DNA of 64,000 nt. It comes from Metallosphaera hakonensis JCM 8857 = DSM 7519. Its GTDB lineage: Archaea; Thermoproteota; Thermoprotei_A; Sulfolobales; Sulfolobaceae. Under the pieces are notes generated by a model. It was given only the letters and a program-made list of their open reading frames with translations. It did not search any database and was not told the origin of the DNA. Below, one piece after another: positions 18,042 through 60,861 of the stretch (its first letter is position 1; every line of letters begins with the position of its first letter). The translations under genes were made by a program, and so were the position numbers. The stretch lies in NCBI RefSeq assembly GCF_003201675.2, contig NZ_CP029287.2, positions 868,001 through 932,000 on the forward strand. Reading direction: 5' to 3'.

Positions 18042-18647
18042 TCACCAATCGTCAGGGGTGAGAACCCCATTTAGAAATGGATTTGATTTTATCTCATCTT
18101 CCAGCTTGGTATTCTCCCCGTGTCCAGGGTAAATTTCATCCACTTTCATGTTCTTGATGAGATCCAGAGTGTTCACTAGTTTTTCCTTATCTCCTCCCAA
18201 GTCATATCTTCCAACGCTTCCCTTGAAGAGGGTATCTCCAGTGAATAGTGCTTTGTCCAGCATAAGAGAAGTGCTACCCAAAGTATGCCCTGGCGTGTGA
18301 ATTACAATCACGTACTTATCACCGAATCCCAGTTGATCCCCATCTCGTAGTTCATCATCTGGATTTGGTGGTAACTCTCTCCAGTCAAAATACAGGGGCA
18401 TAAGGTCCACATCATCATGGTTTAGGAGGAACTTTCCTCCAACTGCCTTTAAGGCCTTCACTCCTAAAACATGATCAAAGTGCCCATGGGTGGATATAAT
18501 GTACTTGAGTTTCAAATTTCCTTCCCTTAAGAATTCTATAACAGATCTCGGATCTCCGCCTGGGTCTATGACAACTGCCTCTCCCTTATCCCAGAGAACG
18601 TAACAGTTGGTGTTCAAGGGGCCAATCACGAAGACCTTTAAGTTCAT
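18042..18647 (-). CDS. Metallo-beta-lactamase-fold hydrolase (glyoxalase II-like)
   Basis: A 201-residue MBL-fold protein with the metal motif STHGHFDHVLG (HxHxDH), HTPGHTLGS and YPGHGENT. The family includes glyoxalase II thioesterases and persulfide dioxygenases. It is the last gene of the sulfur island, only 18 bp after the DsrE-like gene. A role in a persulfide or thioester step is therefore likely by context, though the sequence alone says only MBL hydrolase. No membrane segment is visible, so it should be cytoplasmic. Confidence 0.85.
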   Translation of the reverse strand: MNLKVFVIGPLNTNCYVLWDKGEAVVIDPGGDPRSVIEFLREGNLKLKYIISTHGHFDHVLGVKALKAVGGKFLLNHDDVDLMPLYFDWRELPPNPDDELRDGDQLGFGDKYVIVIHTPGHTLGSTSLMLDKALFTGDTLFKGSVGRYDLGGDKEKLVNTLDLIKNMKVDEIYPGHGENTKLEDEIKSNPFLNGVLTPDDW

Positions 18648-18665
18648 ATTTATATATAGTAAACA

Positions 18666-19028
18666 TTAAAAAATAAGCGTTGCCTTGGATTGAGAACTCA
18701 TGAGGGCGAACTCTGAGACTCCACCAACCTTGACCTTATAGATGAACTGATCTTCGTGAATCCCCTTCACCCTCATCCCAAACTCGCATGCGGTGATCTC
18801 CAAATCCTCTCCGGCTAGATCAACAAGGTTGTCAATGTAATACTTAAGGTTCTTGGTACCGTTTAGTACGATCTTTTCCGACTCCGGTGTTAGGGCCTTC
18901 AGCGCATCCATGGTAAAGAACATGTAAATTTTGTTACCGCTTGAGGCATACCCAATTGCCGTTATTACCCCCATCATCATCTTCTCCTGTTCTCCAGATA
19001 TCATCATGAAAGAGTACATGTCAGTCAT
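18666..19028 (-). CDS. DsrE-family sulfur-transfer-like protein
   Basis: A 120-residue protein of the DsrE/DsrF-like fold. It has a hydrophobic N-terminal strand, the segment GVITAIGYASSGNKIYMFFT, and a single conserved-looking Cys in EITACEFGMRVKG, the position used for persulfide transfer in DsrE-type proteins. The ATG at 19028 overlaps the stop of the preceding gene (ATGA) and follows GGAGGTGA, which makes the start firm; a longer in-frame reading upstream is only overlap. TusA, YeeE/YedE and DsrE proteins form sulfur relay chains, and all three are in this operon. Confidence 0.8.
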   Translation of the reverse strand: MTDMYSFMMISGEQEKMMMGVITAIGYASSGNKIYMFFTMDALKALTPESEKIVLNGTKNLKYYIDNLVDLAGEDLEITACEFGMRVKGIHEDQFIYKVKVGGVSEFALMSSQSKATLIF

Positions 19029-19333
19029 GATTTCACCTCCTTTGATTCCACGAATCTCACAAGCGCGACCCAGAACATCATCAACCCCACGTACACTACG
19101 GTGTAGCATATCCAGGTCGTGGCTTCAATGTATCCCTGAAGCTGGTCCGGCGGAACGTAAACTAGGAAATTAGCTCGGTTTAGGGCTATGTTGTCTGCCC
19201 CGGTCAAATAGATTTTACTGAATTGATACCAAGCTATCGCGAAAAGAGACAAGACCAGGGGTCCTATTACTCTCCTAACCGGATAGGGTTTGGGTTTAGA
19301 TTTCGATTTCTCCATTTCCTCCAATTTTCTCAC
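19025..19333 (-). CDS. Small membrane protein of the sulfur island
   Basis: A 102-residue protein with a basic N-terminus (several Lys, Arg and Pro), one membrane segment around VIGPLVLSLFAIAWYQ and a second around TWICYTVVYVGLMMFWVALV. The loop between them (about 35 residues) would face outside. I do not recognise a family. GTG at 19333 lies just after the transporter stop; ATG at 19315 is an alternative. Its position between the YeeE/YedE transporter and DsrE suggests an accessory subunit of the transporter. Confidence 0.65.
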   Translation of the reverse strand: MRKLEEMEKSKSKPKPYPVRRVIGPLVLSLFAIAWYQFSKIYLTGADNIALNRANFLVYVPPDQLQGYIEATTWICYTVVYVGLMMFWVALVRFVESKEVKS

Positions 19334-19334
19334 C

Positions 19335-20585
19335 TCATAATTTCTCCTGAACTTTGACAGCTAGGAAGACCCCAGCTAACATACCTCCCAGGAAGATATA
19401 TCCGTCATATCCCAGCTGGCCAAAGTTAGTCCACATGAGCCCAACGTTGCAACCCAGTGCCATCCTAACCCCTATTCCCACGAGCATTCCTCCCACGAAG
19501 CCTATGGCTAACCTCTTCCTATCCCTAGGTATCCTTATCTTGAAGTCTCCGCTCAAATAGGAGGCGGCGAAAGCTCCAACGCAAAGCATTACCACCATTA
19601 AGGTGCTTGGGTCCACAATAGGAAGCGAACTGTTGAACCATGGGGTGTTGGTGAACAGGTTTATTCCCAATGGCATCAATATATACTCAAAGAACCTTCC
19701 CCCATCGGAGGAAGTAATTACGAGGTAGTTGAACGTGTATCCAGCTCCCACTATGAAGACTAAGATCATATCCAGTGCCAGTATTACTGTAGAGAGGTTC
19801 GTCCCGTAGGGCTTTCTCAGAAGGAGCATATCCTTAACGTCTTGCTTTAACCTGAGGTTAGAGGGGATAGATGAAGGTGTAGGCCCAGGTACTCCCGGTA
19901 ATGCCTTGGCTCCAACCGCCTTCATTCCCAATCCTCCCATCCCTGCAGTGCCTCTGTTCCACTTTCCCCTCGTCCTCATTTGAAGGTATATTCCCAGGAA
20001 GAGAAGAGGTAGACCCACTATCATGGTGGTTAGGTAAACTGACATGTCCGACACTGAATGGAAGAGAACGTACGGGAGATATTCCACGTAACCCCCTGAA
20101 CTGGTTGAGAATATACCGTTCTCCATGGTATAGGATTGGAATGGCCATATGGCCACGGCGAAAACGTAAGTGCCAATCATCATTCCAAAGAGCTCTATCC
20201 AGTTCTGGACGTATCCGCTACTGGCCCTATATAACATGGATAGATTGCATCCCCCTGCCAATGCAGCACCGAAACCGAAAATAAAGGAACCCACAAGAAT
20301 GTACCATCCGGCAAAGTAATTGTTGAAATACTGATCTACTGGAGGGATCAGTCCAAAGGCCACCAAGAGTCCAGTACCTAGAGCTGTTAAACCAAACAGA
20401 ATCAATAGGGCACCGAATCTCTCGAAACTCTTGGTGGTGAAAATCGAGGTCATTGCGTTTACGAAACAGTAATTCCCTCTCTGGGCTACCCAGCCTAAAA
20501 TGAATCCGCTCAAGCCAAAGAGGCCAAATATGATTGCCCAAGATTCAGAAAAAACTGGTTGAAGTATCATGGAAGGAGTAGGCAA
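19335..20585 (-). CDS. YeeE/YedE-family sulfur-compound transporter
   Basis: A 416-residue polytopic protein with about ten membrane segments. It has the YeeE/YedE (TsuA) signatures: GFGAALAGGCNLSMLYR and GIGVRMALGCNVGLMW, each with a Cys in a Gly-rich helix break, plus the N-terminal AQRGNYCFVNAM. TsuA-type proteins bring in thiosulfate and related ions by passing them along such cysteines. TusA is four bases upstream, the classical pairing for this family. The start is TTG at 20585; an ATG five codons in is an alternative. Confidence 0.88.
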   Translation of the reverse strand: MPTPSMILQPVFSESWAIIFGLFGLSGFILGWVAQRGNYCFVNAMTSIFTTKSFERFGALLILFGLTALGTGLLVAFGLIPPVDQYFNNYFAGWYILVGSFIFGFGAALAGGCNLSMLYRASSGYVQNWIELFGMMIGTYVFAVAIWPFQSYTMENGIFSTSSGGYVEYLPYVLFHSVSDMSVYLTTMIVGLPLLFLGIYLQMRTRGKWNRGTAGMGGLGMKAVGAKALPGVPGPTPSSIPSNLRLKQDVKDMLLLRKPYGTNLSTVILALDMILVFIVGAGYTFNYLVITSSDGGRFFEYILMPLGINLFTNTPWFNSSLPIVDPSTLMVVMLCVGAFAASYLSGDFKIRIPRDRKRLAIGFVGGMLVGIGVRMALGCNVGLMWTNFGQLGYDGYIFLGGMLAGVFLAVKVQEKL

Positions 20586-20588
20586 ATC

Positions 20589-20843
20589 TTATCCCACCTT
20601 GAGTATCCTGAACCTGTACACATCTCCGTCCTTCAGCACAACGTAGGGATACCCCATGTTCTTGCAGAGCGAGGGTAGGGTTACGTCAATTGCCGGTTGG
20701 TGGTCTGTAATAACTTCAAGGACTTGACCTGCCTTCATTTTCTTTAATTTCTTGCTGGCCATCATCTCAGGTACGGGGCATGATTCACCTATCACGTCCA
20801 ACTGATCGTCCGGTTCCTTGATCTTTAGGGGTTCGGAGGACAT
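20589..20843 (-). CDS. tusA: TusA-like sulfur carrier protein
   Basis: An 84-residue single-domain TusA. The active-site motif is [18 protein letters not shown] with C22 as the sulfur-carrying Cys, followed by the [14 protein letters not shown] strand. TusA takes persulfide sulfur from a donor and gives it to acceptors such as DsrE or the heterodisulfide-reductase-like complex in sulfur oxidisers. The ATG follows a GGTGATAAG ribosome site. It is next to the transporter and in one operon with two DsrE-like genes. Confidence 0.9.
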
Positions 20844-20923
20844 CTTATCACCAAGTCATTTATCTCCCTGCATTCTTTTAAGTTATATCCTTTTTTAAAC
20901 TGTTTTTTTAATAGAGTAAAAAT

Positions 20924-21463
20924 TTAGTAAATTAGAAGGTAAAGTATAACCACAAGGTAGATAGCAGAGCCCAGTACAACCCAGGGAAGAGACTTTCCCA
21001 CTATCCTCAACCTAGGGGAAATAACGCCGTCCAACGAGAACTGTCCGGGTCCCTTCATTACTATGTAGAGGTTCAATAGCATGAGAAGCAGGTTTATGCC
21101 ATATTCCTCGGTTCCTGTCCAATAGGCTGAGAGAAAATAGATCAGGTTAGTGTACAGTGCAACCGTGCTAGCCAACCTGGACATCAGACCAAGGAGGGTA
21201 AGAACGCCAAAGCTGATTTCCCCTATCATCACTAAAACGCCCACAGTGTAGACGTGAGGGAATACCACAGTGTATAGGAACCCCCTGATAGGAGATCCCT
21301 CAGCTAAGTATTGAACAGTGAAACCAATGTAGGAGGTCGAACCTGGATTTAGAAATCCAGGGTTCAATAACTTGTTGAAAACACCTGCGTCAATCCATAT
21401 TGAGGCTACTGCTATCCTTAGAATTAACCTTTCTAGATCGAGGTTATCTCTGAGGGACTTCAT
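20924..21463 (-). CDS. DoxD-like membrane protein
   Basis: A 179-residue protein with four or five membrane segments. It resembles DoxD, the large subunit of thiosulfate:quinone oxidoreductase: GVFNKLLNPGFLNPGSTSY, GVLVMIGEISFGVLTLLGL and SAYWTGTEEYGINLLLM match the layout of the bona fide doxD at 60316. The C-terminus is extended by one extra hydrophobic segment, and no DoxA partner follows. It may be a quinone-reducing module that uses another soluble subunit, perhaps the beta-propeller protein of this operon. Its start overlaps the preceding gene by 20 bases. Confidence 0.75.
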   Translation of the reverse strand: MKSLRDNLDLERLILRIAVASIWIDAGVFNKLLNPGFLNPGSTSYIGFTVQYLAEGSPIRGFLYTVVFPHVYTVGVLVMIGEISFGVLTLLGLMSRLASTVALYTNLIYFLSAYWTGTEEYGINLLLMLLNLYIVMKGPGQFSLDGVISPRLRIVGKSLPWVVLGSAIYLVVILYLLIY

Positions 21464-22361
21464 TCTCTACGAACCTCTTCACCAACTGAGAAGATATAAC
21501 TGTTATCTGCCATATACCCACGCCCAGCAAAATCATACCTGCAATGGTGGGGGAAAGGAGCAGAACAGCCTGGAGAATCCCTCCAGTCCAAGCTCCAGCA
21601 ATAAATGCACCGTACTTCCAGGTTAATCCTTTGGTTAGGGCCGGATAGGAGCCAGAGAGAAGATAAAGAAGAGAGTTCATTGCTGTGGGAGTGAGACAAC
21701 ATATTCCAGCTATGGTTCCTATGGAAGGTATGGATGCGGTGAGGAATCCGGCGGTCGTGTTAAGGGTTCCCATCCTCAACGATTTAGGGACGGCCCACTT
21801 CATGGACGAACTGGACACGTATAGGAGAGACATCACGTAGTAAGAGAGAATCAGCGAAACAGTGAGGACTACGTCGTTCAGGACTCCCAGGAGAAGGAGG
21901 GGAACATTGATTACCAGGTTTCCTACCATGGGGATACCTTCTCCCTGATAGGTTAATACGGTGAGTCCCATGAAGTACGAGCTCACGTTCAGGTTAGGGA
22001 TTAATAGGAGTCCAGATACTATCAGAAAACTGATAAAATAGAGAGGAACAAAGGAGGCTATCATGACTTTGCCCACCTTATCCTTTACCGTCGCCCTGAG
22101 AACTGCCCTAAGTCTCATGGGACCATGAACGAGGATAAACCTTCCCCTCCTTGACCTATAAATTAGGAAACTTAGAAGGGATGACACTACTAGGTAAGCT
22201 ATCACGAAGATAAGGAAGGGTTTAAGGAACGTGATTTGACCGGTGTCAGCCAGGGGGGAATACCACACGCCAGTTACCCTGATCCCATTAATTACTATGG
22301 GAAGAAATACGGTCGCATTGAAGAAAAGGAAAATATAGAAAAAAGGATTAATTGGCTTCAT
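21444..22361 (-). CDS. Polytopic membrane protein of unknown function
   Basis: A 305-residue protein with about seven membrane segments, not assigned to a family. The segment SIGTIAGICCLTPTAMNSLL has two adjacent Cys residues in a helix-breaking Gly/Pro context, which could matter for sulfur or redox chemistry. A basic loop (YRSRRGRF) is likely cytoplasmic. It lies between the beta-propeller gene (13 bp upstream) and the DoxD-like gene (overlapping), so the three probably work as one membrane complex. Confidence 0.7.
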   Translation of the reverse strand: MKPINPFFYIFLFFNATVFLPIVINGIRVTGVWYSPLADTGQITFLKPFLIFVIAYLVVSSLLSFLIYRSRRGRFILVHGPMRLRAVLRATVKDKVGKVMIASFVPLYFISFLIVSGLLLIPNLNVSSYFMGLTVLTYQGEGIPMVGNLVINVPLLLLGVLNDVVLTVSLILSYYVMSLLYVSSSSMKWAVPKSLRMGTLNTTAGFLTASIPSIGTIAGICCLTPTAMNSLLYLLSGSYPALTKGLTWKYGAFIAGAWTGGILQAVLLLSPTIAGMILLGVGIWQITVISSQLVKRFVENEVPQR

Positions 22362-22373
22362 GAACTTTCGCCT

Positions 22374-23585
22374 TTAGCAGTGAAGTCCAGTAACTGGAGG
22401 TAACATTACGTCGTTAACTAGGTATGTTCCCATGCTCTGGGTTATGGGAATAACTATTGCAGGTGCTGTGGTCAGCGGTAACGTATATGAGACCGAAAGA
22501 GAAGATAGGGATATAAGGACTATCATTCCACCGGAACTCACACTACCGTGAAGGACTACGTATGCGTAACTACCTCCCGGAGTTAATTCGATGTCTGCTA
22601 GACCTGCTGGGGTGATTTGCGGTAAAGCTATTTCCTTGCTAATCTGGAAGTTGGAAGTTGATATTACCACGACTGTATCGTTATTGCTGGGGGCCTCCAA
22701 GTAGTATTGACCGTTAGGCGTAAAGACGCCTCTCTGTGGGGTTAAACCCTTGGGCATTTGAACCATACCCATGTATTGAAGGCTGGGTAGAGAATAGAAC
22801 CCTACGGAATTATTTCCGGCAAACTCCACCGCAACCATTGTGCCCTGCTCGTTGGGGGATACCATGTATGGTTGTGATCCTAAAGATGTTGGTTTCACCA
22901 CCAAGATCGAACCATTTGAGGCGCTTATTAGGTCTATACTATTGTTGAACCTCATTGGTATAACTAGGCTTGAACTGTCGGGAGTCCATCTAACGTCGCA
23001 TGGGTAAAATGTCTTACCGGTGGGGGACACAAACTTCTGAGACCAGGCTACTTGTAGCGTCTGAGTGCTTATGACTTCCACTTCACCTGATGGACCGTCG
23101 GCTACGGCTGCGTACTGCCCGTTTGGTGAAATGGCTACCCCAATGAAACCCACGGATGAACCCACTTGAAAAGTCTTTACGACCTTGAAGTTGGTAGCAT
23201 TTATAGCGTATATGGTCCCATTATTGAGAGGCATGAATATGTACTTCAAGGTAACCCCTGCTGGCACTTCCTCCCAATAATAAACCTGAACGGGAATACT
23301 GGTGGAAATGTTTTCGACCCTCTGAAACCCTAAGAAGCTCTGACTGGAACTAAATGGATTAAGTACCTGAGCTATTCCCTTCTGGGTCAGTGCCAGGAAA
23401 TAGAAGTTGTTGTTGGGTGTGGAGGTTGTGGTCGTAGTGTTTTGAGTCGTGGTAGGTGTTGTAGTGGTGGTAGTTGGTGTAGTGCTTGTACCAGTTGAAG
23501 TACTTCTCATCATGATATAGGCAGCACCGATCCCTACGAGAAGGATTACAACTATCCCTACTATTAAAAGAACTTTATAGTTCAT
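22374..23585 (-). CDS. Membrane-anchored extracellular beta-propeller (YVTN-type) protein
   Basis: A 403-residue protein. Residues about 5-26 form an N-terminal membrane anchor ([20 protein letters not shown]), followed by a Thr-rich linker of some 30 residues, probably glycosylated outside the cell. The rest is a beta-propeller of the YVTN/WD type, with repeats such as [35 protein letters not shown] and [15 protein letters not shown]. Such domains often serve as a binding platform for periplasmic-side enzymes. Two Cys remain (CDVRW and the C-terminal LHC). It heads the membrane part of the sulfur island. Confidence 0.78.
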
Positions 23586-23670
23586 TCTTTCTCGACCTCA
23601 TATTACCCTGGTATAAACTATTAAAAATAACGTATTTATAACTAGTTTCTATCTTTTGCTTTATTTTTTA

Positions 23671-24000
23671 TTAAATAGTTATAACTAGGTCTACCTGATC
23701 AATCACTGCCCTGTAGAAATCTGGGAAGCAGCCTATTTTACATGACGGAATAAGCTTATCAGCCAAATTCCTCATGTAAACACATTGATCACACGCCTGC
23801 AAGTATATCCCTTTTTCGGCTAGCTTTTCGAGTCTTTCTCCAAGCGGGTTTCCCACCATGGGTATGTAGACGTTATCATGGATGAAGAACATCCCCTTCA
23901 CCTCCACTCCATGTCTTCCCTCTTCCAATTGGGGCACTATCATTTGCCCTAAGATATACGACCCTAAATTGGACTCAACTATGTACGCTACTTTCTTCAA
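23671..24000 (-). CDS. Cys-rich DsrE-like protein
   Basis: A 109-residue protein with a DsrE-like start (VAYIVESNLGSYILGQM) and two Cys pairs: C70 and C73 in LQACDQCVYM, C87 and C91 in PSCKIGCFPDF. DsrE-related proteins carry persulfides on such cysteines; four of them could also bind a metal or cluster. TTG at 24000 is preceded by GGGGATGAT, a good ribosome site, and lies within the end of the upstream gene (26-bp overlap). This pair could be the leading part of the sulfur operon, separated from the beta-propeller gene by about 85 bp. Confidence 0.7.
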   Translation of the reverse strand: MKKVAYIVESNLGSYILGQMIVPQLEEGRHGVEVKGMFFIHDNVYIPMVGNPLGERLEKLAEKGIYLQACDQCVYMRNLADKLIPSCKIGCFPDFYRAVIDQVDLVITI

Positions 24001-24355
24001 AGTATATCATCCCCGTAAGTTCTCTACCTACCTTCTCCAAGACTGAATTTACCTGTAACCCTTTCACTTTGCTGAGGACCTCCTTCCAGTTTTCTTGAGT
24101 TAAGTTACCTTCCTCTCTGGCTTCCAGTAGAACCTCGAGACCAATTATAACCAAGGGACACTCGGATGCCTTATACCTTATTTCTCCATCTTTTGTATAG
24201 AGTTCAAACCATCTTCCATCGCCTAACTCTACCCTTCCAATTTTCTTGTATCCCCCTCCTCCCTCAAGCACATAAAACCTCCTGGTAAGGAAATCCGAGG
24301 CATATTTCCTTTCAACTGCACAACCGCATGAGTCTCTTTTTACCATTTTAATCAT
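23975..24355 (-). CDS. Small Cys-containing protein of unknown function
   Basis: A 126-residue soluble protein. A CGC motif (C10, C12) sits near the N-terminus and another Cys in ASECPLVIIG. The middle (IGRVELGDGRWFELYTKDGE) looks like beta strands. I do not recognise the family. It is the promoter-proximal gene of the sulfur island and overlaps the Cys-rich DsrE-like gene by 26 bases, so tight co-expression and perhaps physical partnership are likely. Nothing in the sequence shows the reaction. Confidence 0.6.
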   Translation of the reverse strand: MIKMVKRDSCGCAVERKYASDFLTRRFYVLEGGGGYKKIGRVELGDGRWFELYTKDGEIRYKASECPLVIIGLEVLLEAREEGNLTQENWKEVLSKVKGLQVNSVLEKVGRELTGMIYFEESSVHS

Positions 24356-24589
24356 TTCTATCTTAGATTACTTATTTATAAATGTTTAGATAACGTTACC
24401 TCAAATGATAAAATGTTCATAGGTCTCAAGAATTAATATGTAAGCTTTAAGTCACGATAGAGTCTAGAGACCTACGATATGATCTTTGTAAAGTCATACT
24501 TCCTTAGATTAATTTAGAGTTGAGAGGATCTCCGTTCACTTCACTAATTCACCTGGAAGCCCCGTTGTGTAGTTATCAGCTTGGTGGTC

Positions 24590-24732: not shown

Positions 24733-25842
24733 TCATCGTAGTTCCGTTCCTCTCGTCTCCATTAAGTAGACGCTCAGGGTAATGGAGATTATCCCTAGCA
24801 GCGCGCCTAAAGTAATGAAAAAGGTTGGCATATCATATAATATCAAGGGAAATATTAACGTGCCTAAAGCCCCGCCTAATCTGCCTGAGAAGAATCCCAG
24901 ACCGACCTCCCTCCCTCTGATAGGAGTCTCAGTGAGTTCTGCCAGTGTGGTAAAGGTGGATGCGAAAACTATTCCTGCGGAGAACCATAGCCAGAAGAGA
25001 AACAGCGTTAATGGGAGCGCATTAAAACTTAAGAGGGATAGCGTACATGATCCACAGCCTATGCAGGTCACGGGCTTCCGGCCCATCTTATCAAGCATAA
25101 CTAAGGCTGAGAGTGACCCCGTACCAAATGAGGCCCAGAGTATCACTCCTGACGTCTCAGTTGTTATATGGAGGTAAGATGGAACATAAGCCGCCAATGA
25201 GGCCAACGCCATGGTCAATAGGAATTGCTGGAACCCAAGTGGGAGTATCCTCCAGTTCATCTTTGATTCTGACCGCCTCCTCTCTAGCCATAGGGGACTC
25301 TCTCGCATTTTTCTATTTAAGATCAGGAGGAGTATAGATGGGAGGGCTCCTGACAACAGTATTGGCCTATAGCCCACACTGGAAAGAGGGATAGAGATGA
25401 GGAGGGCGGAAATCCCTCCTATGGCCCAAGATGTAAAGTTTAGCGACATAACCCTAGCTCTGCTGAATCCCATAAGCTCGGCTATTAAGGTGGCTGAGGT
25501 GGGTATCTCACCACCTATAGCTAGCCCTACGATCACCCTTCCCAGGAGCAGAAGGAAGTACGAGGGTAGAACGCTTATTACGCTTCCCACTATGAAAAGT
25601 AGCCCTGACAACAGGAATAACGTCTTTCTTCCTAAGTAATCGCTCAAGAGGCCTATCACCAGTGCCCCAACAACCGATCCTATGAAAGCCGATGATACTA
25701 GTGTTCCCACCTGAAGAGCGTTAAGAGATAGTGTTTTAGCTATTTGACCCAAGACACCACTAATTATTAGTAGATCATAACCGTCGGAGAAGTTCCCCAG
25801 TCCTAAAGACATAACAGTTAACCTTCTACCCACCTTCTTCAC
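24733..25842 (-). CDS. Major facilitator superfamily transporter
   Basis: A 369-residue MFS protein with ten to twelve membrane segments. The signature between TM2 and TM3 (GLLSDYLGRKTL) and the TM4 segment GRVIVGLAIGGEIPTSATLI are those of the sugar/organic-acid porter group, with RMRE-like loop charges and EMRGREVG-like repeats (ETPIRGREVG). It is slightly short for the group. Substrate cannot be read from sequence. GTG at 25842 is the likely start; an ATG ten codons later is possible. It is transcribed alone after the sulfur island. Confidence 0.8.
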   Translation of the reverse strand: MKKVGRRLTVMSLGLGNFSDGYDLLIISGVLGQIAKTLSLNALQVGTLVSSAFIGSVVGALVIGLLSDYLGRKTLFLLSGLLFIVGSVISVLPSYFLLLLGRVIVGLAIGGEIPTSATLIAELMGFSRARVMSLNFTSWAIGGISALLISIPLSSVGYRPILLSGALPSILLLILNRKMRESPLWLERRRSESKMNWRILPLGFQQFLLTMALASLAAYVPSYLHITTETSGVILWASFGTGSLSALVMLDKMGRKPVTCIGCGSCTLSLLSFNALPLTLFLFWLWFSAGIVFASTFTTLAELTETPIRGREVGLGFFSGRLGGALGTLIFPLILYDMPTFFITLGALLGIISITLSVYLMETRGTELR

Positions 25843-26668: not shown

Positions 26669-27637
26669 TCATGATTTTAGATAGAACACGTTTCCAATCC
26701 CCTTCACTTTGTTTAGATGTGAGATGGCGTCCTCGTTCCAAAGCCTCTGTTCTCTCATTACTAGCATAACTCCCAGGATCTTCTCATCCTCAACAAGGGC
26801 CACCAACAGCCATCCTCTACCAATGGATGCAGAGGAAACGAGGGAGAGACCATCAAACCTTAAAAGTTCAGGAGATAAGCCGTCCACCGGGACTTGCTTC
26901 ACTATTTTATCGAAGACAGAATATAAAAATGCCATGAAGCCCATGTCCTTCATTAGTTCTGGAATTCCTTGTCTGGTCTTTAGGGCCTCAACATATCTAA
27001 CGTTTGAGACTGGATCTCCTAGTTTAAGCATAATAAAGGAGACGTAATCGCCCATGTTAAACATCTCGTATTTACAGTTCATCAGCTTAGCAACTTCAGG
27101 TAGAGTTACGTCAACTGCAGCTGGATGATCCACTAAAACTTCAAGCTCTTCGCCTGGTCTCATTTTAGTGAGCTCCTTTTTAGCAGCGATTTCAGGTACG
27201 GGGCACTCTTCCCCTCTAACATCAAGGACTTTCCTCACGAAGGGCTTCATAAAAGAGGTTATCATTGGCGTTTCTGGTGTCTTCTCTTTCGAGAATTTAC
27301 AGATCGACTCCGCATACTCTTTAAGATTCCTTGAAATTCCCTCCTCTAATGACGATCTCACGACTTCATTGGATGCCTCGATCCTTATTGTCACATGAAG
27401 GTCCTTCTCTCCCACTAGCTCCAGATGAACCCTAAATTTCCCCTCCTCTTCAACTATATCAAGGGAGTTCTTCCCAGCCTTAACTAGGACTGGAAAGGAG
27501 ATCTTACCGAGCTTTAGCTTAGCCGAGTACCCCCAATTGAGTCTCCTGACGTCGGCGAGCATGTAAAGTCTATGATATTTCTCTACGTTAAGTAGAGAGG
27601 CACAAGTCTTGATCCTTAATACGGCAGAACTTTCCAC
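26669..27637 (-). CDS. Three-part protein with a central TusA domain
   Basis: A 322-residue protein. Residues about 136-208 are a TusA-like sulfur carrier with RGEECPVPEIAAKKEL (C145) and VDHPAAVDVTLPEVAKL, close to the free TusA at 20589. Residues 1-120 are alpha/beta with the feel of a lipid/START-like (SRPBCC) domain, and residues about 220-322 (LVSSASIGRGWLLVALVEDE) resemble a roadblock/LC7-type fold. Both assignments are tentative. The fusion could tie sulfur delivery to a regulatory or scaffold function. It stands alone, next to the sulfur island but beyond the MFS gene. Confidence 0.7.
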   Translation of the reverse strand: MESSAVLRIKTCASLLNVEKYHRLYMLADVRRLNWGYSAKLKLGKISFPVLVKAGKNSLDIVEEEGKFRVHLELVGEKDLHVTIRIEASNEVVRSSLEEGISRNLKEYAESICKFSKEKTPETPMITSFMKPFVRKVLDVRGEECPVPEIAAKKELTKMRPGEELEVLVDHPAAVDVTLPEVAKLMNCKYEMFNMGDYVSFIMLKLGDPVSNVRYVEALKTRQGIPELMKDMGFMAFLYSVFDKIVKQVPVDGLSPELLRFDGLSLVSSASIGRGWLLVALVEDEKILGVMLVMREQRLWNEDAISHLNKVKGIGNVFYLKS

Positions 27638-30487: not shown

Positions 30488-31225
30488 TTAAAGAGTCCCA
30501 TTCAAATTTCGTTCTATATTTTCCTTAAATTCTGGAGGTTTAGGTATTTTTATGGCAGCTATCTTATTCAAAAATGTCTCCTTGTCATCTATTTTGAACA
30601 ATTGATTAAATCTTTTCTCAAATCCGATTGTAGAAATTGGTTTTCCACTTATTCCAAAACCACATACCGAGCCAGAGGTATGGGCCGGATAAACCTCTAT
30701 GTAGTCTGGTAATTCCCTTAATCGCCTGAGACTGGTAAACAACTTCTCCTCTGAATTCTCGCCTCCTATATCTACTCGCCCTATAGAACCAACAAAGAGT
30801 GTGTCCCCAGTTAAAACTGCCCAAGGTTCGCTCCAACTTTCCTCTCTTCGCCTATCGTATACCAACAATGAAATGCTATCTGGAGTATGTCCTGGCGTAT
30901 ATATTACCTTGACTTTAGTATTACCGGATTTAATCTCCTGACTGTCGTGTACTCTCTCTACAGAGAACCTAACCTTAGATTCCTCGTGATAGTATACGCT
31001 GGCACCAGTTAAAGACTGAAGTCTCCTAGCTCCCGAGATGTGGTCAGCATGGGTATGCGTCTCTATGATATAGCTTATCTTCATCCTTAATAACTCTGAA
31101 AGCTTAGTGACTTCAGCAACCGTCTCGTAGGTAGGATCTACAACAAACAACTCCCCTGCTTGAGTGCATCCAAACACATATGTAATGCATCCACCATCTT
31201 TAGCTATAATTTGCCTAAATATCAT
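30488..31225 (-). CDS. ETHE1-like metallo-beta-lactamase hydrolase (possible persulfide dioxygenase)
   Basis: A 245-residue MBL-fold protein. HTHADHISGARRL (HxHxDH), YTPGHTPDSISLL, GDTLFVGSIGRVDIGG and YPAHTSGSVCGF follow the ETHE1/persulfide-dioxygenase pattern, in which a single iron oxidises persulfide to sulfite. Glyoxalase II-type activity cannot be excluded. It is transcribed leftward, in the same direction as the TrmB-type regulator just upstream (33 bp), so the regulator may be part of the same unit. It would fit the sulfur metabolism seen elsewhere in the window. Confidence 0.82.
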   Translation of the reverse strand: MIFRQIIAKDGGCITYVFGCTQAGELFVVDPTYETVAEVTKLSELLRMKISYIIETHTHADHISGARRLQSLTGASVYYHEESKVRFSVERVHDSQEIKSGNTKVKVIYTPGHTPDSISLLVYDRRREESWSEPWAVLTGDTLFVGSIGRVDIGGENSEEKLFTSLRRLRELPDYIEVYPAHTSGSVCGFGISGKPISTIGFEKRFNQLFKIDDKETFLNKIAAIKIPKPPEFKENIERNLNGTL

Positions 31226-31257
31226 AAACTAAGATATTTTTATGGGAATAAAAAGGG

Positions 31258-31938
31258 TTATTCACTCATAGAAGTTAAAAGACTAAAATGCTCCCTAACC
31301 TGGTACAGACATCCCTTACACGAATCAAGGATTACCTCCATTTCTCCTTCATCCTCACTAAAGGTTGCTGCTAAAGAATCGTCAAAGATCATGAACTTAG
31401 AACTTAACCCTCTCACTACCTTCACTTTGCCCTTAATCGACGAAACTGGAGTTGTACTGATAAAGGTTAGCTCTCCATGATATCTCTCAAGCATCTTAAC
31501 TAGCCAGTCTGGAGGTTTGTCATAGACTACATCAAGTTTATTTGATTGATCTATGAATTTTTTTATCAACCTCATCACGGCCCTATTTCCTCTCACATGA
31601 ACGCTCCTATCGGCCTCTTTGCTTTTGACCTCTTTCCAGGACCTCATAACAACGGAAATATATCTGTCTATATTTTCAACTAACTTCTCCCTATAAATCC
31701 TCAGAGACGTCTCAGGATCGATCAGTTTTACCCTTTTCGGTCTTCCATGGATCACTTTCACTAGACCTTTTTCCTCGAGCCCTTCACAAACCTGATATAT
31801 CTTCTGGTATGGTATTCCCGATTCCCTTGATATTTCTCTCATTGTTCCGCTGCATTTTCTCATCAAAGCTAACATCGTTTTGGCCTCGTAATCCGAAAGC
31901 CCCAACTTTAGAAGACTTTCGCGTATTTCACTATCCAT
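31258..31938 (-). CDS. TrmB-family transcriptional regulator
   Basis: A 226-residue regulator. Residues about 5-75 form a winged helix of the TrmB type (LSDYEAKTMLALMRKCSGTM, then ISRESGIPYQKIYQVCEGLE), and the C-terminal part looks like the TrmB sensor domain. Cys residues in CKGCLYQ near the end could respond to redox or sulfur. It is divergent from the MFS gene with only 41 bp between the starts, and upstream of the MBL gene in one direction, so it probably controls both. Confidence 0.85.
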   Translation of the reverse strand: MDSEIRESLLKLGLSDYEAKTMLALMRKCSGTMREISRESGIPYQKIYQVCEGLEEKGLVKVIHGRPKRVKLIDPETSLRIYREKLVENIDRYISVVMRSWKEVKSKEADRSVHVRGNRAVMRLIKKFIDQSNKLDVVYDKPPDWLVKMLERYHGELTFISTTPVSSIKGKVKVVRGLSSKFMIFDDSLAATFSEDEGEMEVILDSCKGCLYQVREHFSLLTSMSE

Positions 31939-36010: not shown

Positions 36011-36019
36011 GTGCCATCA

Positions 36020-37366
36020 ATGAATAAGTTAGTGATCATTGGTTATGGCGCTGCAGGATTCGCTGCAATGATAAAGGCCAACGAGCTTGGAGTAAAGCCT
36101 GTGTTGATAGGAAAGGGACCCATAGGAGGTACTTGCGTGAACGTAGGATGTGTTCCGTCCAAGAAAATGATATCTGTGGGCGAGAAATACAAAGTGGCCA
36201 GGGACGTCTTAAAGAAGCCGGTGTATCCGAACTTTCACGACTCGTTTCGAGAGGAACAAGAGTTAGTTTCGGAGATGAGGAAAACTAAATACGAGGACGT
36301 ACTCTCCCAATACGACGTGGAATTGATAGAAGGTGAGGCCAGGTTCACGTCACCTCATTCGGTGAAGGTTAACGGAAAACATGTTGAGGGAGAAAAGTTT
36401 GTGATCGCCACAGGCTCCTCTCCAAATGTCCCCGATATACCTGGGCTAAGGGAGGCTGGATTCTGGACTAACGTTGAGGCCCTCTCGCCTGATAGAAAGA
36501 TCGATTCTCTGATCGTTATAGGTGGGAGAGCCCTCGGGTTGGAGTTCGCCCAGATGTATAGGAGACTCAACGTGGACGTTGCGCTGTTACAAAGGAGTCC
36601 AGTCCTTCTACCTGAATGGGAGCCGGAGGTATCTCTGGAGGTGAGAAAGATAATGGAGGAAGAGAACGTGACTGTAGTTACTGACGTGAAAATCAAGGAA
36701 GTTAGCAAGGGTCAAGGAAAGTTGGTCATCACTGACAAGGGAGAGGTGGAAGCGGACGAGATCCTCATGGCTACGGGGAGGAGACCCAACGTTGACCTAA
36801 ACTTGGAGGTTGCGGGAGTAACCCTTAACTCCCGGGGAGGAGTGAAGGTGGATCAGGAACTCAGAACTGACAATCCAAATATTTTCGCTGCGGGCGACGT
36901 GTTAGGCGGTAAAATGCTTGAAGCGCTGGCCGGAAGACAGGGTTCCATCGCCGCAGAGAACGCCTTAACCGACTCCCATAAGAAAATCGATATGCTTAGC
37001 GTTCCGCAAGTGGTTTTCATTGAACCCAACGCAGTGAGCGTGGGATTAACGGAGACCGAGGCCAGGAGATTAGGTGAAGTTGAGAGTAGAACCTTACCGT
37101 TGTCCTCTGTCGCAAAGGCTTCCATCTTAGGTGATACGAGGGGATTCATTAAAATGGTAACCGTGAACAGGAGAGTAATGGGAGTTCACGGTGTAGGGAA
37201 GAACTTCGCTGAGATAGTCAGTGAGGCTGCTCTAGCCATTAAGATGAGGGCCACAGTGGACGATCTGATGGACACGATACACGTATTCCCGACCATGGCC
37301 GAGGCTCTTAGATTGGTGGCGATCTCCTTCAACTCAGACGTCTCGAAACTGAGCTGCTGTGTTTGA
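36020..37366 (+). CDS. merA: Mercuric reductase
   Basis: A 448-residue FAD-dependent disulfide oxidoreductase that reduces Hg(II) to Hg(0) with NAD(P)H. The redox-active pair is C39 and C44 in GGTCVNVGCVPSKK. The C-terminal SCCV supplies the second Cys pair needed to bind Hg(II) at the active site, which separates MerA from lipoamide dehydrogenase. GYGAAGFAA and ATGRRPNVDLNLE are the FAD and NAD regions. The N-terminal heavy-metal-associated domain of many bacterial MerA is absent, as in other archaea. ATG at 36020 follows AGGTG; a GTG three codons upstream is less likely. Confidence 0.93.
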   Translation: MNKLVIIGYGAAGFAAMIKANELGVKPVLIGKGPIGGTCVNVGCVPSKKMISVGEKYKVARDVLKKPVYPNFHDSFREEQELVSEMRKTKYEDVLSQYDVELIEGEARFTSPHSVKVNGKHVEGEKFVIATGSSPNVPDIPGLREAGFWTNVEALSPDRKIDSLIVIGGRALGLEFAQMYRRLNVDVALLQRSPVLLPEWEPEVSLEVRKIMEEENVTVVTDVKIKEVSKGQGKLVITDKGEVEADEILMATGRRPNVDLNLEVAGVTLNSRGGVKVDQELRTDNPNIFAAGDVLGGKMLEALAGRQGSIAAENALTDSHKKIDMLSVPQVVFIEPNAVSVGLTETEARRLGEVESRTLPLSSVAKASILGDTRGFIKMVTVNRRVMGVHGVGKNFAEIVSEAALAIKMRATVDDLMDTIHVFPTMAEALRLVAISFNSDVSKLSCCV

Positions 37367-59809: not shown

Positions 59810-60319
59810 TTAACTTACCACGAACGTGGCACTGGCCTCCGACTTCAGCGATATCCCTGGAGTGAAGAGCTTCACGGTGTAGGAACCTGGGGACAGGTGC
59901 ATGGGCAGAGCTAGCTGGAACTGAGCCTCACTACCTAGAGGCACGGCGAATCCGGTATACCAATTGACGTAGTCCCTCTTGTTCTCATTCCAAGGAGCTT
60001 GAATCACCTTGGTGGTGTAATTGGAGATCTCTGACGAATTAAGGAACACGTGCCAAGTGGAGTTATATATCTCCATGAGGGGAACGGTAGCCGGATAGGC
60101 GTCAGGCCCGTCCACGTCGGTGACGTTGAGGATCAGGAGGGTTTCGTTTCCCTTAGTGACGTCATTAGCGTAGGTTATCTCCAATTTGGGAAGTTTCGAG
60201 TAATTCACCAGAGGACCGACCACGTTACCGTAAGCCCATTGACCCGTGCCTAGGATGAAGGCTATCACCAGGACTCCAAATATCAATGCGACAACTGCAG
60301 TTCTGTCCATGAACATCAC
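59810..60319 (-). CDS. doxA: Thiosulfate:quinone oxidoreductase small subunit DoxA
   Basis: A 169-residue protein with an N-terminal membrane anchor ([20 protein letters not shown]) and an extracytoplasmic beta-rich domain ([38 protein letters not shown]). This is the DoxA subunit described in Acidianus ambivalens, where DoxDA oxidises thiosulfate to tetrathionate and passes electrons to caldariella quinone. Its start overlaps the doxD stop by four bases. Confidence 0.87.
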
Positions 60320-60861
60320 CAGAGTTTAATCAAGTTGAGGATCGGCACTTTCCTTGAGAGTGCCCTATCCCCGAACTTCCTGTAGAGCAGGGCGTCAAGA
60401 CCCATTGTCCTCCCTGTTGCGGTCAGCATTAGAACTACGGATCCCGCTGTCAGAAGTGATCCGATCTGCCATTCGTCTTCACAGGTGGAACCTAACCAGT
60501 AAGCCGGAGCGAAACCCACGGACATCAGCAACGCGGCGAAGGCTGATAGCCTTGTCAGTAGTCCCAAGATCAGGAATAGCCCAGCTATTATTTCCACATA
60601 GCTAAATAGGGTGAGGAACGTTACGTCCAATGCCTTGTTCTCCAGCGTCATTAAAAGGAAAGGTTTGAAGGGACCTGCGTGTGGTAGGAAGTTAACGAGC
60701 TTACCACCGACAAAGGACGAAGAGCTCGGATCCAATTTTGCGGGCTTGAGTACGGCCTTTCTCAGCCCACCGTCCAAGAACATCCAACCCACAGCGAATC
60801 GGATTGGAAAGAGGTACTCCATCCTGGTTGAGTTCCCAGGGTTTAACTGCTTCTCAGCCAT
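60316..60861 (-). CDS. doxD: Thiosulfate:quinone oxidoreductase large subunit DoxD
   Basis: A 181-residue protein with four membrane segments. [20 protein letters not shown], then [40 protein letters not shown] and [20 protein letters not shown] are characteristic of DoxD. It forms the membrane part of the doxDA quinone oxidoreductase. A DoxD-like paralogue without DoxA is in the sulfur island (20924). Downstream doxA completes the operon; the ATG is followed by a normal hydrophilic start. Confidence 0.9.

What the first reader, a model, noticed from the sequence alone, without database searches (positions are those of the whole stretch)
18042..24355. Ten-gene sulfur island joining TusA, two DsrE-like proteins, YeeE/YedE, DoxD-like and a surface beta-propeller
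Ten minus-strand genes, mostly overlapping or separated by under 20 bp, combine a thiosulfate-type importer (YeeE/YedE), a TusA carrier, two DsrE-like proteins, a DoxD-like quinone-type subunit with no DoxA, a Cys-Cys seven-TM protein, an anchored beta-propeller and an MBL hydrolase. TusA, DsrE and YeeE/YedE are known relay partners. Their combination with an external propeller and a DoxD-like protein is not a system I know. It may import or oxidise a sulfur compound at the membrane and hand persulfide to TusA. Function is inferred.
Basis: partly seen in the sequence, partly recalled or inferred. Interest (0 to 1): 0.68.

Follow-up and report, generated by a model that had tools for sequence, protein, structure and literature searches.

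The report
Sulfur-import gene island of hot-acid archaea
A set of genes shared by most heat- and acid-loving Sulfolobaceae archaea pairs a known kind of sulfur importer and its carrier proteins with an undescribed surface propeller, a membrane protein carrying a Cys-Cys pair and a DoxD-like protein, and may be part of how these cells take sulfur in from outside.

Summary
The ten minus-strand genes are real. They are not one operon but three small conserved ones: [g126-SaoD-like], [propeller-7TM(Cys-Cys)-DoxD] and [TusA-YeeE-2TM-DsrE]. A TusA-domain gene outside the given coordinates (26669-27637) belongs to the set. The MBL gene was found only in Metallosphaera. The 7TM and YeeE genes occur in exactly the same 23 of 31 Sulfolobaceae genomes and lie close together, although the blocks invert and shuffle. 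The DoxD is a separate clade (100/100) from all DoxA-partnered DoxD, and two genomes keep it with no DoxA at all. All three transport cysteines of YeeE are invariant. The propeller's only two cysteines and two histidines are invariant in 23/23, including a free C-terminal GLHC; so are the only two cysteines (CC) of the 7TM. Published 'YeeE up 211-fold on sulfur' most likely refers to a paralog elsewhere in the genome that lacks two transport cysteines. Part of the island was noted before: its DsrE is Mcup_1706 ('DsrE5'). Best reading: an extracytoplasmic sulfur-capturing unit feeding a YeeE-TusA-DsrE importer. The linkage is strong; the chemistry is inferred. A new variant of a known kind.

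The parts
18042..18647 (-). MBL-fold hydrolase, glyoxalase-II-like (HGHFDH); found only in Metallosphaera, accessory
   Evidence: Pfam Lactamase_B 2e-36; best PDB relatives are small hydroxyacylglutathione-hydrolase-like proteins, ETHE1 weaker; among fetched loci only in Metallosphaera, absent from G036
18666..19028 (-). DsrE-like sulfurtransferase (DsrE5 group, ortholog of Mcup_1706), single invariant Cys80
   Evidence: Pfam DsrE/DrsE_2; C80 22/22; gene counting to Mcup_1712/1713 (PMC4175335, PMC8551704)
19025..19333 (-). small membrane protein with one invariant Cys76; no known family
19335..20585 (-). YeeE/YedE-family importer with the three transport cysteines C40, C113, C379 plus C335
   Evidence: Pfam PF04143; PDB 6leo alignment; C 23/23; 23/31 genomes
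20589..20843 (-). TusA sulfur carrier with CPVP motif, Cys22
   Evidence: Pfam TusA 2.8e-20; C22 23/23
20877..20899 (-). TATA-like elements before the TusA-YeeE-2TM-DsrE block
   Evidence: 24/25 relatives with TATA-like hexamer upstream of TusA against 1-5/22 for internal genes; not composition-controlled
20924..21463 (-). DoxD-family membrane protein of a clade without DoxA
   Evidence: Pfam DoxD 9e-52; tree, 23 island versus 25 DoxA-adjacent rows split 100/100
21444..22361 (-). polytopic membrane protein with invariant Cys221-Cys222 (GICCLTPTA)
   Evidence: no Pfam or PDB match; CC 23/23; 23/31 Sulfolobaceae genomes
22374..23585 (-). membrane-anchored extracytoplasmic beta-propeller with invariant C196, H346 and C-terminal GLHC
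   Evidence: AlphaFold2 pLDDT 74; best PDB match 1l0q, archaeal YVTN surface propeller
23612..23641 (-). TATA-like elements before the propeller-7TM-DoxD block
   Evidence: 22/22 relatives
23671..24000 (-). SaoD-like DsrE-family protein, invariant C70, C73, C91
   Evidence: NCBIfam SaoD 121.6 bits (cutoff 169); C 21/21
23975..24355 (-). g126, small Cys protein (DxCGC...ECP), invariant C10, C12, C66; paired with SaoD
   Evidence: no Pfam family above its cutoff; C 21/21; second g126-SaoD pairs in three genomes
24374..24383 (-). TATA-like box before the g126-SaoD block
   Evidence: 19/20 relatives
26669..27637 (-). TusA-domain protein (322 aa, CPVPEI); island member outside the given coordinates
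   Evidence: Pfam TusA 2e-17; beside or between the island blocks in nearly all relatives

Best explanation
The island encodes a Sulfolobaceae-specific sulfur-acquisition system. Outside the cell, the anchored propeller binds a reduced sulfur compound (thiosulfate, polythionate or sulfane sulfur) at a site built from its invariant Cys and His residues. The 7TM(Cys-Cys)-DoxD pair is its membrane partner and exchanges electrons or thiol-disulfide equivalents, possibly with the quinone pool. The released sulfur passes YeeE along its cysteine triad to TusA, then to DsrE5 and the SaoD-like protein, for the Hdr pathway or biosynthesis. Shown here: gene composition, conserved linkage and co-occurrence, cysteine conservation, a DoxD clade independent of DoxA. 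Inferred from family knowledge: import by YeeE with TusA as acceptor. Hypothesis only: substrate, propeller chemistry, electron route.
For: Identical presence pattern of 7TM and YeeE in 31 genomes, 23 with and 8 without, concordant also within three genera, whereas a YeeE paralog is distributed differently. Synteny of three blocks that invert but stay adjacent. Cysteine triad of YeeE as in the solved transporter 6leo; its partner in S. thermophila and E. coli is a TusA-family protein next door (PMC11073785). Propeller C196, H346, H402, C403 and 7TM CC invariant in 23/23. DoxD without DoxA is monophyletic and persists in G306 and G067, where no DoxA was found.
Against: No expression, biochemical or genetic data for these genes. 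The published strong induction of YeeE on sulfur most likely belongs to the paralog. Genomes sized like S. tokodaii and S. solfataricus keep the island although S. tokodaii is a weak sulfur oxidizer and S. solfataricus is not counted among the strong ones (PMC11323534), so it does not track with strong sulfur oxidation. The 7TM model is poor (pLDDT 55) and the propeller C-terminus is unresolved.
Confidence: 0.5

Rival explanations
1. Two neighbouring but separate systems: an ordinary YeeE-TusA-DsrE sulfur (thiosulfate) importer, and an unrelated propeller-7TM-DoxD respiratory or surface complex that happens to be kept nearby.
For: The blocks have their own TATA-like elements and shuffle in orientation, so they are not one transcript.
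Against: The 7TM and YeeE genes are gained or lost together in all 31 genomes, which neighbourhood alone does not require after rearrangements; the TusA-domain gene sits between or beside the blocks in most genomes.
Confidence: 0.22
2. A TQO-like enzyme in which the anchored propeller replaces DoxA: propeller plus DoxD plus 7TM oxidises thiosulfate or another sulfur compound outside and reduces caldariellaquinone, with import as a side branch.
For: DoxD family membership; both DoxA and the propeller are single-helix-anchored proteins, by hydropathy for the propeller and by inspection of the DoxA sequence; the propeller has an invariant Cys/His set.
Against: The island DoxD is a distant, separate clade lacking any cysteine; most genomes with the island also have a true doxDA.
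Confidence: 0.3
3. A sulfur-sensing or metal(loid)-handling device: SaoD-like and g126 proteins, YeeE and TusA-domain protein move sulfur or metal-thiol adducts for signalling or detoxification rather than energy.
For: SaoD relatives belong to a Sec-assisted organometallic (SAO) operon; a YeeE-family protein, SoxT1B, serves signalling in Hyphomicrobium; the 322-aa TusA-domain protein could be a sensor.
Against: SaoD score below the family cutoff and no other Sao family match among the ten genes; no DNA-binding domain found in the TusA-domain protein.
Confidence: 0.15

Closest known systems
YeeE-YeeD (TsuA-TsuB) thiosulfate importer
   Same: YeeE family protein with three transport cysteines, TusA-family partner encoded next to it
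   Different: Scores far below the TsuA equivalog cutoff (74 against 400 bits); carries extra 2TM, DsrE and the propeller-7TM-DoxD block
[quoted passage not shown]
   Same: YeeE, TusA and a DsrE-family protein together
   Different: The two further cluster proteins (DsrF/H type II) are absent; a small membrane protein takes the place; only in Sulfolobaceae among sampled Thermoproteota
DoxDA thiosulfate:quinone oxidoreductase (TQO)
   Same: DoxD domain; a true doxDA lies 4-5 kb from the island in several Metallosphaera
   Different: Island DoxD is a separate clade without DoxA
SoxT1 with SoxYZ and periplasmic thiol oxidoreductase (Hyphomicrobium)
   Same: YeeE-family transporter plus an extracytoplasmic protein with a Cys at or near its very C-terminus as possible sulfur donor
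   Different: No Sox or thioredoxin-like family match in the island; donor would be a propeller with C-terminal GLHC
'Sulfur island' of Metallosphaera cuprina (Mcup_1706-1724, Liu 2014)
   Same: Same locus; its DsrE5 and a sulfate-transporter-domain gene are part of it
   Different: The passages retrieved do not mention the propeller, 7TM, DoxD paralog, SaoD-like and g126 genes or their co-occurrence

Membership tests
TQO (DoxDA) | DoxD domain | tested here: met
   PF04173 175.9 bits, cutoff 22.7
TQO (DoxDA) | adjacent DoxA subunit | tested here: not met
   No DoxA beside any of 23 island DoxD; none found in G306 and G067 genomes
TQO (DoxDA) | groups with DoxA-partnered DoxD | tested here: not met
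   Separate clade 100/100, AU test not run; NCBIfam TQO model 46 bits against cutoff 300
TsuA/YeeE thiosulfate transporter | Sulf_transp fold and three conserved cysteines | tested here: met
   PF04143 176 bits; C40, C113, C379 in 23/23, aligned to 6leo
TsuA/YeeE thiosulfate transporter | TusA-family CPxP partner encoded next door | tested here: met
   TusA with CPVP within about 10 bp in all loci
TsuA/YeeE thiosulfate transporter | TsuA equivalog score | tested here: not met
   74 and 70 bits against cutoffs 400 and 645
TsuA/YeeE thiosulfate transporter | thiosulfate transport activity | not testable with these tools
   needs uptake assay
YTD cluster | yeeE, tusA and dsrE together | tested here: met
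   TusA-YeeE-2TM-DsrE block in all 23 genomes
YTD cluster | two further DsrF/DsrH type II genes | tested here: not met
   the only other gene of the block is the 2TM protein
SAO system (SaoD) | SaoD equivalog score and other Sao genes | tested here: not met
   121.6 against 169 bits; no other Sao family matched among the ten genes
Tetrathionate hydrolase (PQQ-like propeller) | sequence relation to PQQ-like/TetH propellers | tested here: not met
   Only generic lactonase/YVTN propeller matches; no direct comparison with a TetH sequence was made
ETHE1 persulfide dioxygenase (MBL gene) | closest to persulfide dioxygenases | tested here: inconclusive
   closer to small glyoxalase-II-like proteins (5e-25) than to ETHE1 (2e-9)
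SoxT | located with soxXABYZ genes | not tested
   No sox search of the genome was run; no Sox family match among the ten genes

The most novel reading that the evidence does not exclude
The propeller is an archaeal extracytoplasmic sulfur carrier or thiol oxidase: its C-terminal GLHC cysteine works like the SoxY swinging arm (or closes a Cys2-His2 metal site with C196 and H346), is loaded outside the cell in hot acid, and hands sulfur through 7TM(CC)-DoxD and YeeE to TusA: a Sox-free loading and import route.
Probability: 0.2. Interest if true: 0.82.

Novelty: new variant of a known kind. Interest (0 to 1): 0.6.

Why it matters
How sulfur enters the cytoplasm of Sulfolobales is stated as an open question (PMC8551704), and known cytoplasmic enzymes alone did not let S. 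acidocaldarius oxidise sulfur strongly (PMC11323534). The genome matching S. acidocaldarius lacks the whole island, so adding it to an engineered strain tests the idea directly. The work also separates two YeeE paralogs: the one most likely reported as induced on sulfur lacks two of the three transport cysteines, while the island copy has all three.

Tried and rejected
A weak 7TM match in another Thermoproteota family (G043) is a chance hit in a glycosyltransferase region; four others are under 20 bits. YeeE relatives outside Sulfolobaceae (up to about 43% identity over segments) have at most a TusA or rhodanese nearby and none of the other island genes. The SAO paper (PMC9879109) is not held. 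Locus-tag literature searches for M. sedula found nothing and for M. cuprina only the known paper. The 7TM structure model was too poor (pLDDT 55) for a fold search. Copper-enzyme readings of the propeller (NosZ-like, thiocyanate dehydrogenase) were considered because of weak or generic matches and set aside: the propeller has only two histidines. The TATA scan has no composition control. Kyte-Doolittle hydropathy undercounts the helices of DoxD and 2TM and was used only as a rough guide.
Full report
Organism. The window is 868001-932000 of a single-contig 2,544,115-bp genome. Named relatives with matching contig lengths (Metallosphaera javensis, M. yellowstonensis, Ca. Aramenus, Sulfolobus sp. 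UBA167) place it in Sulfolobaceae, genus Metallosphaera; M. hakonensis is likely from genome size (own knowledge). Other genome names used below rest on genome length (G036 M. cuprina, G173 S. tokodaii, G081 S. acidocaldarius, G307 S. solfataricus P1, G244 A. brierleyi) and are inference, except that Sulfolobus sp. A20 (2,688,317 bp, PMC5127849) equals G088 and that gene counting supports M. cuprina (below).

What is there. Ten minus-strand genes at 18042-24355 are confirmed. From upstream to downstream: g126 (126 aa, DxCGC...ECP), a SaoD-like DsrE protein, an anchored propeller, a polytopic membrane protein with a Cys-Cys pair, a DoxD protein, TusA, YeeE, a small 2TM protein, DsrE, and an MBL hydrolase. 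Junctions: seven overlap or are under 20 bp, two are 80 and 85 bp. DsrE starts at 19028 (120 aa), overlapping the 2TM stop, as in relatives.

Conservation. The 7TM protein occurs in 23 of 31 Sulfolobaceae genomes and YeeE in exactly the same 23. Both are missing from the same eight, including one species each in three genera whose other members have both. Ignoring phylogeny, perfect concordance has p of about 1e-7; phylogeny lowers this, but the within-genus cases are independent changes. Outside the family, 398-genome searches of the phylum found no full 7TM and only distant YeeE proteins, with none of the other island genes around the ten I read.

Block structure. In all loci read three blocks keep their internal order: g126-SaoD (lost in G088 and G304), propeller-7TM-DoxD, and TusA-YeeE-2TM-DsrE. 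In the Metallosphaera genomes and G244 all lie on one strand; elsewhere the blocks point in different directions but stay next to each other. A 320-aa TusA-domain protein, in the window at 26669-27637 behind an MFS gene, lies between or beside the blocks in nearly all of them, and further small TusA proteins are added in several genera. TATA-like hexamers stand mostly 26-56 bp before g126, propeller and TusA in 19/20, 22/22 and 24/25 cases, against 1/22, 1/22, 5/22 and 1/22 before 7TM, DoxD, YeeE and 2TM. I therefore expect three or more coordinated transcripts, not one. The scan is not corrected for the AT-rich spacers.

Cysteines. Counting over 21-23 genomes: YeeE C40, C113, C379 and C335 invariant; TusA C22; DsrE C80; SaoD-like C70, C73, C91; g126 C10, C12, C66; 2TM C76; 7TM C221-C222, its only cysteines; propeller C196 and C403, its only cysteines, and H346 and H402, its only histidines. 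All 23 propellers end in PP(V/I)(T/S)GLHC. DoxD has no cysteine. In S. thermophila YeeE the corresponding three cysteines line the path and a TusA-family partner docks as a fourth (PMC11073785); the alignment with 6leo is. In the AlphaFold2 model the propeller core is confident but the C-terminal tail (395-403) is not; from the YVTN repeat pattern C196 precedes a first strand and H346 ends a second strand, so both should face the same top side (inference, no coordinates measured). Loop charge suggests that the 7TM Cys-Cys pair faces outward (weak).

DoxD. Forty-eight DoxD proteins of the family split into 25 next to DoxA and 23 in islands, 100/100 support and one change on the tree. The DoxA-adjacent side contains two well-separated groups, likely the published DoxD and DoxD2, so the island copy is a third kind. 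G306 and G067 have the island DoxD as their only DoxD and no detectable DoxA: it works without DoxA. The window also carries an ordinary doxDA at 59810-60861.

Relation to the literature. Liu et al. 2014 (PMC4175335) described a 'sulfur island' in M. cuprina with DsrE5 (Mcup_1706), a sulfate-transporter-domain gene and TQO (Mcup_1712/1713). Counting ORFs in G036 from the island DsrE gives exactly 1707-1711 before DoxA, so the island DsrE is DsrE5 and the locus is partly known. The passages retrieved do not mention the propeller, 7TM, DoxD paralog, SaoD-like and g126 genes. Willard et al. 2024 (PMC11323534) reported a YeeE up 211-fold in A. brierleyi on sulfur and absent from S. tokodaii, S. 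acidocaldarius and S. solfataricus. The island YeeE is present in the genomes of S. tokodaii and S. solfataricus size; a second YeeE (G000:1184889-1185950) has the reported pattern, with fragments in G173, G306 and G307 and nothing in G081. That paralog lacks the first two transport cysteines in 13/13 sequences. So that expression result should not be transferred to the island.

Mechanism. Most likely an importer of sulfane sulfur or thiosulfate (YeeE to TusA to DsrE5), supplied or gated from outside by the propeller-7TM-DoxD unit. Shown: linkage, co-occurrence, conserved residues. From family knowledge: YeeE transport and TusA acceptance. Hypothesis: substrate, the propeller's Cys/His site, quinone coupling by DoxD-7TM, onward delivery to Hdr. 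The island also occurs in species not known as strong sulfur oxidizers, so a role in sulfur supply or in handling reactive sulfur is as possible as energy metabolism.

Verdict. A real, well-conserved, only partly described system; a new variant of the YeeE-TusA import theme. Interest 0.6; confidence in linkage high, in chemistry low to moderate.

Noticed in passing
G000:1184889-1185950 (L031:7752-8987): A second YeeE paralog lacks transport cysteines 1 and 2 but matches the published distribution of the sulfur-induced YeeE; followed by a small membrane protein gene.
   Followed up: yes
L051:6517-7217, L052:7133-7815, L053:7057-7760: Second, diverged g126-SaoD gene pairs elsewhere in three Sulfolobaceae genomes: the pair is a unit of its own.
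   Followed up: partly
window 59810-60861: Canonical doxDA (TQO) pair, 4-5 kb from the island in several Metallosphaera but about 35 kb away here.
   Followed up: yes
window 30488-31938: MBL-fold protein with THTHADH motif (ETHE1/persulfide-dioxygenase-like) next to a TrmB-type regulator.
   Followed up: no
window 36011-37366: Pyridine nucleotide-disulfide oxidoreductase with GGTCVNVGC and a C-terminal CCV, resembling mercuric reductase.
   Followed up: no
window 24733-25842: MFS transporter gene inserted between the island and its TusA-domain gene; not found there in the relatives read.
   Followed up: no
L047:7544-8287 and L048:11323-12021: TusA fused to a C-terminal domain of unknown family, inside the island in one genus (g6): up to four TusA-type proteins in one locus.
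   Followed up: no
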